Assembly (NCBI GenBank): GCA_025359985.1
Contig: JANYDB010000029.1
Coordinates: 1 to 32,125 of the forward strand
Length of the DNA: 32,125 nucleotides
Direction: 5' to 3'
Origin: Burkholderiales bacterium
GTDB taxonomy: Bacteria > Pseudomonadota > Gammaproteobacteria > Burkholderiales > Usitatibacteraceae
Position numbers and translations under genes: made by a program. Each line of letters opens with the position of its first letter. The stretch's first letter is position 1. The notes under the pieces are model-generated. The model ran no database searches. It was not told the DNA's origin and was given only the letters and a program-made list of their open reading frames with translations. This document shows positions 532 through 8,014 of the stretch, in pieces.

Positions 532-993
532 TCACGCCTTGATGGATTGCGCAGCCGAGTGAATCGCGGCGCGGATACGAGTGTAAGTGGCACATCGGCA
601 AATATTGCCGCTCATGGCCGCATCAATTTCAGCATCCGTTGGCGCCGCATTTTTGGTCAGTAGCGCCGTGGCCGACATGATTTGCCCGGACTGACAATAG
701 CCGCACTGCACCACATCTTCAGCAATCCAAGCCGCCTGAACGCGCTTGCCGACCGGGGTTTTACCGATTTCCTCAATGGTCACCACCCGCTTGCCTGCCA
801 TCGCGGATAACGGCATGGAACATGAGCGCGTGGGCTCACCATTTACCAGCACCGTACACGCCCCACATAGCGCCATGCCGCAGCCATATTTAGTGCCAGT
901 CTTTTGCAGGTTATCGCGTAAAAACCATAGAAGGGGCGTGTCTGGGGACACATCAGTTTCCAACTGTTCGCCGTTAATGGTGAAGCGGATCAT
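532..993 (-). CDS. (2Fe-2S)-binding subunit of molybdenum hydroxylase (IorA-like)
   Basis: Small electron-transfer subunit of about 153 residues that carries two 2Fe-2S clusters and partners the Mo subunit encoded just downstream. The N-terminal plant-ferredoxin-like domain has [13 protein letters not shown] followed by a further Cys (RSC). The C-terminal helical domain has CGYCQSG and GNICRCATY. All eight expected cysteines are visible and the length is typical of IorA/CoxS-type subunits. I chose the ATG at 993-991 ([10 protein letters not shown]) because GGAG lies 6 nt upstream and the family begins here. The frame extends 21 codons further upstream, but that extension looks like noncoding sequence. 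No FAD subunit is next to it, which fits the IorAB type that passes electrons to a cytochrome or other acceptor rather than to NAD. Confidence 0.95.
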
Positions 994-1198
994 GGGTTTC
1001 TCCAGGAATGAGTTCAATAAAAGAAGAGAGCAATGGCAAACTAGGAAATAAATCACTACAACCCGACATCTGCATAGGCGAAAAGTTTACGCTAGTTGCG
1101 GGACAAAATAAATTGATGCGGCCATATCTTTACCATTCACGGCAAACCGCTGCATATTCGCACCAGCCGACTAAAAGCACGGCGTAGTATCATCGTGC

Positions 1199-3534: not shown

Positions 3535-4419
3535 ATGATCACACCCTACTCACAACGCATCACCACGGCTTTAACGATGCTCATCATCATTGCTCTAGGG
3601 CTTCAGCTTTCATGGTGGAGCTGGCATTTTATCGCGCCCGCCATGACGAGCGATGCCTCAGGCGCTAGCACTGGCGCGGGTTTTGAGCCTGCTGCCGACT
3701 ATAAAAAACGCGCGCGTCAGTTATTTGGCGGCGATAGTTCTACCGGAGTTGCCAGCATGGATGCCACTTATGTTGCCAGTGATATCAGTCTGAAAGGCGT
3801 ATTCGCGGTGGATGGTAAAACCTTATCAGCGGCAGTGGTTAATTTAGGCGGCAAAGATCAAGTGGTGGTGTTGAATCAGGCGCTGTCGAACGGGGCCAAG
3901 CTGACCGAGATACACGCCGAATATATTATGATCAGCCGCGCGGGTAGCGTCGGGCCCGGTGAAAAAATTATGTTGGATCAGTTCCGCAGCACTCGCGGGC
4001 CCGCTGGAGCTAACACCGCCAATGCTGGCGCTAATGTCGGCGCCGGTACGGGCACCAATGCCGGTGCCGCCAATGCAGGTTTCCGGCTCAATGTCGCGAA
4101 TGCTGGTCTCAATAGCTATAGCCTGTCTCGCCAGGAGCTTAATACCGTGTTGCAGGATCAACGCCAGTTGGAATTCCTCGGCCGTATCGGCAACGCACCC
4201 AATGGGGGTATTCGCGTCGATGATGCGCCCACCAATTCACTCTCCAGCAAACTCGGGCTTCGGCCTGGCGACATCATCAGCAACGTCAATGGCCAGCCGG
4301 TCAACGGCACCGGCGATTTAGCCCGGCTCTACCAACAATTTGCCACCCTCTCGCAAGTACGTATCGAGCTTAAACGGGGGGGTGCGCCAGTGTTATTAAC
4401 TTACGCGGTGCAGAATTAG
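3535..4419 (+). CDS. gspC: Type II secretion system protein GspC
   Basis: Inner-membrane clamp protein that links the cytoplasmic-membrane platform to the secretin. A short cytoplasmic N-terminus precedes one membrane segment (about residues 12-30, LTMLIIIALGLQLSWW). A homology region follows at about 80-140 (YVASDISLKGVFAVDGKTLSAAVV). Next is a low-complexity Ala/Gly/Asn linker at about 160-185, then a C-terminal PDZ domain at about 215-294 (LGRIGNAPNGGIRVDD, SKLGLRPGDIISNVNGQPV). At 294 residues it has normal length. It is the first gene of the gsp set but is cut off from gspD by an inserted hydrolase gene, so it may not share the main gsp transcript. Confidence 0.92.
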   Translation: MITPYSQRITTALTMLIIIALGLQLSWWSWHFIAPAMTSDASGASTGAGFEPAADYKKRARQLFGGDSSTGVASMDATYVASDISLKGVFAVDGKTLSAAVVNLGGKDQVVVLNQALSNGAKLTEIHAEYIMISRAGSVGPGEKIMLDQFRSTRGPAGANTANAGANVGAGTGTNAGAANAGFRLNVANAGLNSYSLSRQELNTVLQDQRQLEFLGRIGNAPNGGIRVDDAPTNSLSSKLGLRPGDIISNVNGQPVNGTGDLARLYQQFATLSQVRIELKRGGAPVLLTYAVQN

Positions 4420-4527
4420 CCTTTGTTAATGCCCCGCCGTGCCTGCATGGCATGGTAAAAAGCAACGCCAATTTTCTGCCACGCAATATTCAGCGTCCTA
4501 TTCAATGTCAAGGCGCGTCTTCGCCGC

Positions 4528-4558
4528 TTGACCTAAACTTCGGATTGCGGGTTATATT
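4528..4558 (+). promoter_or_regulatory. Candidate promoter for the MPH-like hydrolase gene
   Basis: TTGACC at 4528-4533 and TATATT at 4553-4558 (spacing 19, or 18 to TTATAT) resemble sigma-70 -35 and -10 boxes. They lie about 30 bp upstream of the ATG at 4586. That start has a good ribosome binding site, GGAG ending 7 nt before it. The spacing is longer than ideal, so this is tentative. Confidence 0.4.
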
Positions 4559-4585
4559 TTTTATTAACACTTTCGGAGTATTCGT

Positions 4586-5575
4586 ATGATCAGTATTAAA
4601 ACGCTTCACCACCAAACCATTGCGGCATTGATACCCATGATTACTGCTGCCGCCTGTTTAAGCTTTATCGCCGCCGGATCTGCACACGCCGCTGCGCCAA
4701 TGGTTAAAACCCCTAACCCCGGCTATTACCGCATGATGCTGGGCGAATTTGAAATCACCGCTTTGTCTGACGGCACCGTCAATCTGCCGGTGCGCGATTT
4801 ATTGACACACACCGCGCCATCCGCCACCGATCAAGCGCTTGCCAAGGCGTATTTGAAAAACCCACTGGAAACCTCCGTCAATGGCTACCTCATCAACACC
4901 GGTGACAAGCTGGTGCTGGTGGATACGGGTGCGGCTGGCCTGTTTGGCCCAACGCTGGGGAAGCTGCTCACTCATTTGAAAGCAGTCGGCTATCAACCAG
5001 AGCAGGTTGATGAAATATACATCACTCACATGCATGCCGATCATGTGGGTGGACTGATGTCCGGTGACAAACTTGCGTTCCCGAACGCGATCGTACGCGC
5101 CGATAAAAAAGATGCGGATTTCTGGTTAAGTCAGGCAAATCTTGACAAAGCGGCAACCGATGACAAAGGTTTTTTTCAAGGCGCGATGGCGTCCTTGAAC
5201 CCCTACGTCAAGGCGGGCAAATTTAAAGCCTTCGACGGCAACACCGATTTAATGCCCGGCATCAAAGCCATCGTTACGCACGGCCATACTCCCGGACACA
5301 GCATTTATGCGATCGAAAGCAAAGGCCAGATACTGATGCTGTGGGGCGATCTGATACATGTGGCCGCGGTGCAGTTCAGCAATCCATCCGTCACCATCAA
5401 GTTTGACAGCGACAGCAAAACCGCCGAAGCCCAGCGCAAGAAAGCTTTCGCCGACGCAGCCAAAGGCGGCTATCTGGTGGCCGCTTCCCATCTGTCATTT
5501 CCGGGTATCGGTCATATCGTGGCTGCTGGCAAGGGCTACACTTGGCTGCCAGTCAATTACTCTGCGCTGAAGTAA
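4586..5575 (+). CDS. Secreted MBL-fold hydrolase, methyl parathion hydrolase/dihydrocoumarin hydrolase family
   Basis: A 329-residue metallo-beta-lactamase-fold enzyme with a signal peptide cut near residue 35 (GSAHA|AAP). Zinc ligands are all present: HMHADH at 148-153, H234 in HGHTPGH, D255 in WGDLIH, and H302 in ASHLSFPG. From memory of the family, long blocks match methyl parathion hydrolase (Mpd): GYYRM, EITALSDGTV, LVLVDTGAAGLFGPTLG, YQPEQVDEIYITHMH, GAMASLNPYVKAGKF and KKAFADAAKGGYL. The residues L72, H258, I271 and F273, and the absence of the extra Ser at 193, match the reported ancestral dihydrocoumarin hydrolase rather than the organophosphatase. A lactone/aryl-ester hydrolase in the periplasm is therefore more likely. 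It stands between gspC and gspD with its own candidate promoter, RBS and terminator. Confidence 0.88.
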   Translation: MISIKTLHHQTIAALIPMITAAACLSFIAAGSAHAAAPMVKTPNPGYYRMMLGEFEITALSDGTVNLPVRDLLTHTAPSATDQALAKAYLKNPLETSVNGYLINTGDKLVLVDTGAAGLFGPTLGKLLTHLKAVGYQPEQVDEIYITHMHADHVGGLMSGDKLAFPNAIVRADKKDADFWLSQANLDKAATDDKGFFQGAMASLNPYVKAGKFKAFDGNTDLMPGIKAIVTHGHTPGHSIYAIESKGQILMLWGDLIHVAAVQFSNPSVTIKFDSDSKTAEAQRKKAFADAAKGGYLVAASHLSFPGIGHIVAAGKGYTWLPVNYSALK

Positions 5576-5616
5576 TCCATACGATCTCATCTGTATGGTG
5601 CAGATGACATTTTTTG

Positions 5617-5639
5617 AAAAGGGCCTCGCGGCCCTTTTT
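5617..5639 (+). terminator. Rho-independent terminator after the MBL-fold hydrolase
   Basis: A perfect hairpin with stem AAAAGGGCC (5617-5625), loop TCGC, and stem GGCCCTTTT (5630-5638), followed by another T. It lies 42 nt after the hydrolase stop and makes that gene a closed transcription unit. The remainder of the 321-bp gap to gspD (5640-5896) holds no gene I can support. It ends in an AT-rich stretch from about 5790 that probably contains the gspD promoter. Confidence 0.85.
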
Positions 5640-5896
5640 AAAATTGCGGTTTATGAACTGCTGGATACATTAAAAACTGAAGCGGTTATTGCTGCCGCCA
5701 CCTACTGTCATGCAGCATTAGCAGCTTTCGAGAACGGGCAAGTCCGTCAATTCACGGTGGGCCCTGTACTGCTTTATGCCCACTTCCAGTCCTAATTAAA
5801 AATCGTGATTTAGCCCAATTTGCGGCATTTATACTGCTACAACATTGATGCCGTACAATCATGAAATAAATTTAAATCGTTTTTTATGGGCGCGCA

Positions 5897-8014
5897 ATGC
5901 ACTTATCTTTTACACGACCAATACGATCAACTTTTGCGGCAGCCTGCGTAGTCCTGGCAATGAGCAGCAGCACGCTGGGCACCATCTCACCGGCATTTGC
6001 CGATGATATGGTGATGATCAATTTCGTTAACGCCGATATTGCTTCAGTGGTGAAAGCAATAGGCGCGCATACCGGAAAAAATTTCATCCTTGACCCTCGC
6101 GTGACGGGCAATATGAACATCATTTCACAGACACCCGTATCGAAAGAACTGGCGTATCAAATTTTGTTGTCAGCACTTAGGGTGCACGGCTTTGCGGCAA
6201 TTGAAGAGCGTGGCGCCGTGAAGATCGTGCCGGAGGCGGATGCCAAAACCAGCGGCACCGTGATTGATCGTGGCACGCAGATGTCGGGTGACCGTATTGT
6301 CACGCAGGTCTTCGTGTTGCAAAATGAGTCAGCCGCGCAGATTGCGACCGTATTGCGACCGCTAGTCGCACCGAATAATTTTATCGGCGCTTATCCTGGC
6401 AACAACACACTGGTGATCACCGATTATGCACAAAATGTGCAGCGCATCGCCAAGATTATTGCTTCAATTGATGTGCCGACGAGTGCTGATGTGCAACTGA
6501 TCAGACTGCAGTACGCGAGCGCTGTTGATGTTGCCAACCTGCTTGGCCGCCTGATGCCGGAGGCCACGCCGAATCCCACCCAACCTGGCGCGCCCGCGAA
6601 ATTGACGATCGCCGTGGAGCCACGTACCAACAGCCTGATGATGCGTGCCGATACCCCGGCACTGATTACGCGCATCAAAACATTGGTGGCGGGCATGGAT
6701 ATTCCGACTGCTGCGAACGGCAATATCCATGTGGTGTATCTGCGTAATGCAGAAGCCACCAAGCTGGCTGAAACCTTGCGCGGACTGATGAGCAGCGGCA
6801 ACAGCGGTAGCAGCAGTGTCGGCAGCAACGCTACACCCGCCACGCTCAATGCCGCAAACCCTAGCACTGGCGCGGCTTCGGGGGCATCCACTTCGAGTGC
6901 AGTCATTAGCTCGATCCAAGCTTATGCGGCCACCAATTCACTGGTAATAGTAGCGCCCGACCATGTTTATAATTCACTGCGTTCGGTGATCGACAAACTG
7001 GATACGCGCCGCGCCCAGGTTTATGTAGAAGCCTTGATTGTGGAAGTATCAACCTCGATTGCATCCGAGTTTGGTATCCAGTGGCAGGACCTGACGGGTG
7101 TCAACAACACCGGAACCCGCTTGATTGGCGGCACCAATTTTGGCGGCACCGGCCAGAATATTATTGGCGCAGCCGGCAATATCAGCACCGTGGGCACCGG
7201 ACTCAATCTCGGCATCGTCCGTGGCAAGGTAACCATCCCCGGGGTTGGCGAAGTGCTAAACCTCGCCGCTCTGGCGCGCGCCCTCGAAGCCGATCAACGC
7301 AACAACGTGCTCTCCACCCCCAACATCCTCACCCTGGACAACGAGGAAGGCAAAATTGTAGTGGGGCAGAATGTGCCATTTGTGACGGGCAGCTTTACCT
7401 CTACGGCCAGCAGTTCCACCAATCCGTTCCAGACCATTGAACGCAAAGATATCGGCCTGACCCTGCGGGTTACGCCGCAGGTTGCCGAAGGTGGCGCGGT
7501 CAAATTAAAGGTTTACCAGGAAGTATCCAGCGTCGTGCCAACTACCAGCAGTATTAAATCGGCTGATTTGATTACCAATAAACGTTCCATTGAAAGCACT
7601 GTGCTGGTCGACGATGGGCAGATCGTAGTGATCGGCGGCTTGATCCAGGATGACACCAAAAATAACGACAGCAAAGTACCGCTCCTGGGCGACATCCCGT
7701 TCATCGGCAACTTCTTCAAATACCAGACCCGCAATCGCGATAAAACCAATTTGATGGTGTTCCTCAGGCCCTATGTGTTGCGCGACGGCAAATCAGCCAA
7801 TGCGCTCACCGGTGATCGATACGACTACATTCGCAATGAACAAGGTGTGCATTTGAAGGATGCTGAATCACTGTTGCCGCCCACCGGCGGGCCGCAATTG
7901 CCAGCGGTTTCTTCGCAGCCCATTACTTCTCTTAAGACTACTTCTGCTGCACCGGCGGCCGCATTCTCAATTGCACCACCCGCTTCGTCACCCGCCCCCT
8001 CAACGGTAAAGTAA
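5897..8014 (+). CDS. gspD: Type II secretion system secretin GspD
   Basis: Outer-membrane secretin that forms the multimeric exit pore. The 705-residue precursor has a signal peptide cut near residue 35 (SPAFA|DD). The N0 domain follows ([20 protein letters not shown]), then KH-like N1-N3 domains with the usual [22 protein letters not shown] and [16 protein letters not shown] segments. Before N3 completes there is a Ser/Gly/Ala-rich insertion at about 300-335. The secretin domain spans about 370-625, with [28 protein letters not shown] and the signature [16 protein letters not shown] Pro/Ala/Ser-rich tail of about 45 residues ends the protein, where a pilotin-binding region may lie. gspE begins 2 nt after its stop. 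Confidence 0.96.

What the first reader, a model, noticed from the sequence alone, without database searches (positions are those of the whole stretch)
4586..5575. Methyl parathion hydrolase homologue that keeps all five ancestral (dihydrocoumarin-hydrolase) states
The protein aligns almost block for block, from memory, with methyl parathion hydrolase. The reported evolutionary path from a dihydrocoumarin hydrolase to that enzyme used l72R, insertion of S193, h258L, i271T and f273L. This protein reads L72, one residue fewer in the loop at 193 (KAATDDKGFF), H258, I271 and F273. It therefore looks like a natural, unconverted relative of the xenobiotic enzyme in a chromosomal setting.
Basis: partly seen in the sequence, partly recalled or inferred. 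Interest (0 to 1): 0.7.

Follow-up and report, generated by a model that had tools for sequence, protein, structure and literature searches.

The report
Ordinary relative of a pesticide-degrading enzyme
The gene encodes an ordinary, conserved bacterial hydrolase related to the enzyme that recently evolved to break down the pesticide methyl parathion; it has the usual family residues at the five positions that changed, and tracing its relatives led to a natural near-final version of the pesticide enzyme and to what looks like its original genome neighbourhood.

Summary
ORF 4586-5575 (329 aa) is a metallo-beta-lactamase-fold protein, 78% identical to the reconstructed dihydrocoumarin hydrolase AncDHCH1 and 70% to methyl parathion hydrolase (MPH). 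It has L72, no S193 insertion, H258, I271, F273 and all seven metal-site residues. But these states are the family default: 76 of 84 sampled non-MPH members have all four substituted positions ancestral, and none has the insertion. The window protein also differs from both MPH and AncDHCH1 by W253 and a longer loop after L73. Its tree partner is a congener, not MPH, although an AU test does not exclude a grouping with MPH. It lies between gspC and gspD of a type II secretion cluster. None of ten congener regions has it there, and eight have other ORFs in that gap, so position says little about function. Verdict: new member of a known kind, most likely an exported lactone/aryl-ester hydrolase under purifying selection. 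Side result, worth more than the finding: Caballeronia zhejiangensis OP-1 carries an mpd allele with four of the five derived states (I271 still ancestral) and no IS6100 on its contig. A metagenome bin carries a DHCH-type gene in the same gene order. This is probably the native locus of mpd, with i271T as the last step.

The parts
4586..5575 (+). DHCH-type metallo-beta-lactamase-fold hydrolase gene, 329 aa
   Evidence: Pfam Lactamase_B 1.7e-19; PDB hits AncDHCH1 and MPH
4586..4690 (+). Predicted N-terminal export signal, residues 1-35
   Evidence: Read by eye; deposited MPH chains 8zu4/8zu5 begin at the residue aligned with window residue 36. No signal-peptide program was run
4799..4801 (+). 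codon for L72 (R in MPH)
5027..5044 (+). HxHxDH metal-binding motif, H148 H150 D152 H153
   Evidence: the four residues conserved in 84 of 84 rows
5141..5176 (+). loop that lacks the S193 insertion (residues 186-197)
5285..5287 (+). metal ligand H234
   Evidence: H in 84 of 84
5348..5350 (+). bridging metal ligand D255
   Evidence: D in 83 of 84
5357..5359 (+). codon for H258 (L in MPH)
5396..5404 (+). codons for I271 and F273 (T and L in MPH)
5489..5491 (+). metal ligand H302
   Evidence: H in 84 of 84
5576..5645 (+). two hairpins with T-runs directly after the gene, terminator-like
   Evidence: -29.6 kcal/mol, z -6.39, 0 of 200 shuffles as stable; one of them also, where the number of terminator-like sites in the region (4) is near the shuffled mean (3.3)
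3535..4419 (+). gspC, upstream neighbour
   Evidence: Pfam T2SSC 1.9e-11
5897..8014 (+). gspD, downstream neighbour; gspE-gspN follow to 16967
   Evidence: TIGR02517 1.1e-192; Pfam

Best explanation
The gene is an ordinary chromosomal member of the dihydrocoumarin-hydrolase-type (DHCH) branch of the metallo-beta-lactamase superfamily, the branch from which methyl parathion hydrolase arose. Shown here: homology, the family residues at all five MPH positions, an intact dinuclear metal site, purifying selection, and presence in about half of its genus at varying positions. Inferred: the protein is exported by an N-terminal signal, binds two divalent metals in the periplasm, and uses a metal-activated water to open lactones or cleave aryl esters such as dihydrocoumarin, with at most weak methyl parathion activity because F273 and L72 leave the pocket narrow. 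Its physiological substrate is unknown. Its place between gspC and gspD is probably incidental, with transcription ended by its own terminator before gspD.
For: PDB hits 1e-152 (AncDHCH1) and 1.7e-148 (MPH); alignment and five positions; seven metal-site residues identical to MPH; dN 0.157-0.219 against dS 1.4-3.7 (saturated) in seven pairwise comparisons, first 35 aligned codons left out; 6 of 13 genomes of the genus have a close copy at E <= 1e-114; in five congeners the copy has none of the window's neighbours beside it; hairpins after the gene; GC of the gene matches its surroundings. From literature passages: DHCH to MPH mutations and effects (PMC8222346); F273 clashes with methyl parathion in the ancestor and R72 stabilises the leaving group (PMC10739712 passages); relative OPHC2 hydrolyses dihydrocoumarin best and showed no AHL hydrolysis (PMC3817169 passages).
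Against: No activity data for this protein. NCBIfam's best model is the AidB AHL-lactonase family (196.7 bits, curated cut-off 360), so an AHL or other lactone could be the substrate. No conserved neighbour across lineages points to a substrate. OPHC2's authors doubt that lactonase, esterase or phosphotriesterase is its native role. Export was not tested with a program.
Confidence: 0.8

Rival explanations
1. A quorum-quenching N-acyl homoserine lactonase of the AidB type.
For: AidB model is the top NCBIfam hit, E 4.4e-58; 4zo2 acylhomoserine lactonase is a PDB hit at 2.6e-33.
Against: The score is 196.7 against a curated cut-off of 360; AncDHCH1 and MPH match far better; the relative OPHC2 showed no AHL hydrolysis (PMC3817169 passages).
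Confidence: 0.1
2. A substrate of the adjacent type II secretion system, encoded in its cluster and secreted to the medium.
For: It sits between gspC and gspD on the same strand; the mpd locus of C. zhejiangensis and the L088 locus have gspB next to the gene.
Against: None of 10 congener gspC-gspD regions holds it, and 8 of 10 hold other ORFs there (several typed); in 5 congeners it lies away from the window's neighbours; apart from gspB beside the mpd lineage, none of 89 loci has the window's gsp genes within the DNA held around the match.
Confidence: 0.07
3. A recent stop on the historical path to MPH, that is, a direct donor or close sister of the mpd lineage.
For: All five ancestral states and 78% identity to AncDHCH1; the AU test does not reject a window + MPH + AncDHCH1 clade (p 0.24).
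Against: The window pairs with congener L021 (91/97), while MPH pairs with AncDHCH1 and L088 (99/94); W253 and the longer 70-89 loop separate it from MPH and AncDHCH1; the mpd gene order is found at L088, not here.
Confidence: 0.03

Closest known systems
AncDHCH1, reconstructed dihydrocoumarin hydrolase (PDB 5hif, 6c2c)
   Same: Same fold, metal ligands and all five ancestral states; 78% identity.
   Different: Window has W253 instead of L and one more residue in the loop after L73; AncDHCH1 is a reconstruction, the window gene is natural.
Methyl parathion hydrolase (Mpd/MPH), strain WBC-3, PDB 1p9e
   Same: 70% identity, same fold and metal site.
   Different: None of R72, S193, L258, T271, L273 is present; not on an IS6100 composite element, unlike the WBC-3 and JS425 plasmid copies.
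L088, uncultured proteobacterium SRR9109409_bin.16 DHCH-type gene
   Same: Ancestral at all five positions.
   Different: Sister to MPH + AncDHCH1 in the tree (99/94), only native of 84 with L253, and shares the mpd gene order.
OPHC2 (PDB 4le6, 4o98)
   Same: Same superfamily branch, E 7.6e-86 and 2.1e-85; dihydrocoumarin was its best substrate (PMC3817169 passages).
   Different: Much more distant; isolated as an organophosphorus hydrolase.
AidB AHL lactonase family (NF047979)
   Same: Profile match over residues 51-322, 196.7 bits.
   Different: Well below the curated cut-off of 360 bits.

Membership tests
DHCH-type hydrolases (MPH family, ancestral type) | Full-length homology to AncDHCH1/MPH | tested here: met
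   E 1e-152 over residues 34-327
DHCH-type hydrolases (MPH family, ancestral type) | L72, no S193, H258, I271, F273 | tested here: met
   the states are the family default (76 of 84 at the four substituted positions)
DHCH-type hydrolases (MPH family, ancestral type) | Dinuclear metal site HxHxDH, H, D, H | tested here: met
   H148 H150 D152 H153 H234 D255 H302
DHCH-type hydrolases (MPH family, ancestral type) | Dihydrocoumarin hydrolysis | not testable with these tools
   needs purified protein
Methyl parathion hydrolase (MPH) | R72, S193, L258, T271, L273 | tested here: not met
   0 of 5
Methyl parathion hydrolase (MPH) | Membership of the MPH clade in a tree | tested here: inconclusive
   free tree: pairs with L021, not MPH; AU test does not reject a joint clade (p 0.24 and 0.38)
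AidB AHL lactonase | NCBIfam curated cut-off (360 bits) | tested here: not met
   196.7 bits
Type II secretion substrate | Conserved linkage to the gsp cluster | tested here: not met
   0 of 10 congener regions

The most novel reading that the evidence does not exclude
Two extant loci preserve the history of the mpd gene. L088 keeps the unconverted gene at its native address (gspB / DHCH / sigma factor / polyketide-cyclase-like / MFS). C. zhejiangensis OP-1 and a second Caballeronia-group genome (G446) hold the mpd version in that same order, without IS6100 on their contigs. OP-1 is a natural penultimate genotype (R72, S193, L258, L273 with I271). i271T was therefore the last of the five historical steps, as the published epistasis landscape predicts, and IS6100 later excised a 2.6-kb piece of this locus onto plasmids.
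Probability: 0.65. Interest if true: 0.6.

Novelty: new member of a known kind. Interest (0 to 1): 0.35.

Why it matters
The window gene itself adds one more natural DHCH-type enzyme, with W253 and a longer loop near position 72, useful as a background for asking whether the MPH mutations work outside the AncDHCH1 lineage. The larger gain is the side result. The DHCH to MPH transition is a model case of enzyme evolution built on a reconstructed ancestor and laboratory genotypes; an extant penultimate allele and the native gene order would give that history natural evidence on the order of mutations and on where the gene came from.

Tried and rejected
Type II secretion link: the gsp neighbours suggested a secreted substrate, but the gap between gspC and gspD holds other ORFs in 8 of 10 congener regions and the DHCH-type gene in none. 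In 2 of the 10 (L117, L125) gspC was not found upstream of gspD.

Conserved neighbours as a clue to the substrate: clustering of flanking ORFs in 86 loci plus the window gave only lineage-specific neighbours (largest cluster 18 loci, chemotaxis-receptor-like by eye, mostly Undibacterium).

Recent acquisition of the window gene: GC of the gene matches its surroundings; a single copy in its genome.

Phage or virus carriage of mpd: a viral-contig scan with MPH found no relative.

More mpd alleles: further samples found none besides G028 and G446 at the limits used: 399 genomes of the L088 family at E <= 1e-140 gave 8 matches, the best 72% identical, so none an mpd allele; 58 of the Caballeronia genus (2 matches); 398 of its family (the same 2); 398 of its phylum (1, G028 itself). 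These are samples; the genomes overlap in part.

Tree: the backbone is poorly resolved (45 of 84 inner branches starred), so the claim that the window lies outside the MPH clade is only a preference; the AU test does not reject the alternative.

Literature: no paper on the OP-1 allele or the native mpd locus was found in searches; most hits were seen as listings only, and the original Nature Chemical Biology 2019 paper was not looked up. A structure prediction was not run because sequence similarity to solved structures is already decisive.

Full report
WHAT IS THERE. The window holds an ORF at 4586-5575 (+), 329 aa, with a metallo-beta-lactamase domain (Pfam PF00753, 1.7e-19). Its closest solved structures are the reconstructed dihydrocoumarin hydrolase AncDHCH1 (5hif/6c2c, E 1e-152) and methyl parathion hydrolase (1p9e, E 1.7e-148). 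The window's genome has one copy.

THE FIVE POSITIONS. I took the MPH gene from the plasmid of strain WBC-3 itself (NZ_CP142111.1) and aligned it with the window, AncDHCH1 and congeners (A1; identities of the window to MPH 70%, to AncDHCH1 78%). Published mutations are l72R, insertion of S193, h258L, i271T, f273L (PMC8222346). The window has L72, one residue fewer in the 193 loop, H258, I271 and F273, and by coincidence of one extra residue after 73 and one fewer near 193 its own numbers equal MPH numbers at the four substituted positions. All seven metal-site residues are present.

HOW UNUSUAL IT IS. A scan of one genome per species (genome contigs) found 312 relatives, of which the best 80 were kept. 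With plasmid and congener rows, and after dropping MPH itself (L017, L018), the OP-1 Mpd (L044), AncDHCH1 and three duplicates (L037, L047, L082), 84 rows remain, window included. H258 and F273 are in 84 of 84, L72 in 80, I271 in 80, all four together in 76. The 193 loop is one residue shorter than in MPH in 83 and two shorter in one. The ancestral states are therefore the family default. The sample favours close relatives of the query.

WHERE IT DIFFERS FROM ANCDHCH1. At MPH position 253 the window has W, like 81 of 84 rows; MPH, AncDHCH1 and one native, L088, have L. Between MPH positions 70 and 89 the window has 22 residues, like 77 of 84; MPH and AncDHCH1 have 21, as do seven rows including L088. 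In a maximum-likelihood tree of 87 rows the window pairs with congener L021 (91/97, not starred); MPH groups with OP-1 Mpd (100/100), AncDHCH1 (100/90) and L088 (99/94). The backbone is poorly resolved and an AU test does not reject the window with MPH and AncDHCH1 (p 0.24) or with L088 added (p 0.38).

FUNCTION. Seven pairwise comparisons give dN 0.157-0.219 against dS 1.4-3.7 (saturated; the first 35 aligned codons left out), so the protein is maintained. The N-terminus reads as an export signal by eye; deposited MPH chains begin at the residue aligned with window 36. By analogy with characterised relatives (PMC8222346 sections 4 and 7 and passages; PMC3817169 and PMC10739712 passages) it should be a dinuclear metal hydrolase of aryl lactones or esters. 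The AidB AHL-lactonase model scores 196.7 bits, below its cut-off of 360.

SURROUNDINGS. Upstream lie SnoaL-like, solute-binding and gspC genes; downstream gspD to gspN. Two hairpins with T-runs follow the gene. Close copies occur in 6 of 13 genomes of the genus. In five of these (own genome aside) none of the window's neighbours lies beside the copy (two of the five stretches are short or start at a contig end). In ten congeners whose gspD region was fetched, none has the gene upstream of gspD; gspC was found in eight, each with another ORF in the gap: methyltransferase-like in L118 and L126, glycosyltransferase-methyltransferase in L119, no Pfam match in L120, DUF4397 in L121, L122 and L124; L123 looks like L124 but was not scanned. 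The gap between gspC and gspD thus varies in cargo, and the link with secretion is probably incidental. A scan of 89 relative loci for the window's gsp genes and for GspB found only GspB, in the mpd lineage.

SIDE RESULT: THE ORIGIN OF MPD. L044 (Caballeronia zhejiangensis OP-1, contig 73) reads R72, S193, L258, I271, L273, that is, four of five derived states. Against WBC-3 a block of 2,581 bp is collinear with three substitutions and one 6-bp difference; all three substitutions are nonsynonymous in mpd (I271T, A280V, T301S). In WBC-3 the block is bounded exactly by IS6100 terminal repeats. OP-1's 10,758-bp contig and the 12,409-bp contig of a second genome of the same genus (G446, found in 2 of 58 genomes with G028) show no IS6100 transposase and no IS6100 terminal repeat; the same search finds two transposase copies and four repeats in each plasmid locus. 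These are draft contigs, so an IS beyond their ends is not excluded. The two contigs differ at five sites in 10,758 bp, four of them nonsynonymous in mpd codons 271, 280, 281 and 301. G446 has T271, V280, V281, A301. Family states are I271 80 of 84, A280 84 of 84, A301 60 of 84, so by parsimony the common ancestor of the three alleles had I271 with the other four derived states; reversion in OP-1 would need two back-changes (271 and 280). The published landscape says i271T lowers activity alone in all metals but Cd and becomes positive only after several other mutations (PMC8222346).

NATIVE ADDRESS. In L044/L140 the order is gspB (Pfam T2SSB), mpd, sigma factor, polyketide-cyclase-like, MFS. 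L088 has the same genes in the same order: GspB 63% over 75 aa, DHCH-type gene 75% over 299 aa, sigma 77% over 422, cyclase-like 67% over 233, MFS 82% over 555, plus an extra RibD_C gene between the DHCH-type gene and the sigma factor. L044 and L140 have about 71% GC, above what I recall for Caballeronia, which suggests import from a high-GC donor like that of L088 (69%). At 75% identity L088 is a relative of the donor, not the donor.

CONCLUSION. The finding is correct as an observation and ordinary in meaning: a new natural member of the DHCH-type family. Its pursuit exposed an apparent natural intermediate and a candidate native locus of mpd, which I rate higher than the finding.

Noticed in passing
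L044 5908-6903 (C. zhejiangensis OP-1); L140 7113-8105 (G446): mpd allele with four of five derived states (I271 ancestral), and a second full five-state allele with V281 and A301; the two contigs are 99.95% identical over 10,758 bp with four of five differences in mpd, all nonsynonymous.
   Followed up: yes
L088 102-6095: DHCH-type gene in the gene order of the mpd locus (gspB, hydrolase, sigma factor, polyketide-cyclase-like, MFS); likely relative of the mpd donor.
   Followed up: partly
window 4420-5896; L117-L126: The gspC-gspD interval holds different ORFs in different species of the genus (DHCH-type, methyltransferase, glycosyltransferase-methyltransferase, DUF4397), while gspC and gspD flank it.
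   Followed up: partly
L017 5846-5907 against L044 5870-5925: A 6-bp tandem duplication (two extra codons in the leader upstream of the usual start) distinguishes the IS6100-borne mpd from the OP-1 copy.
   Followed up: no
MPH residue 301, beside metal ligand H302: The three mpd alleles differ here (T, S, A), and the family also varies (A 60, T 13, S 11 of 84).
   Followed up: no
window 532-1056 (-): [2Fe-2S]-binding protein with Fer2 and Fer2_2 domains.
   Followed up: no
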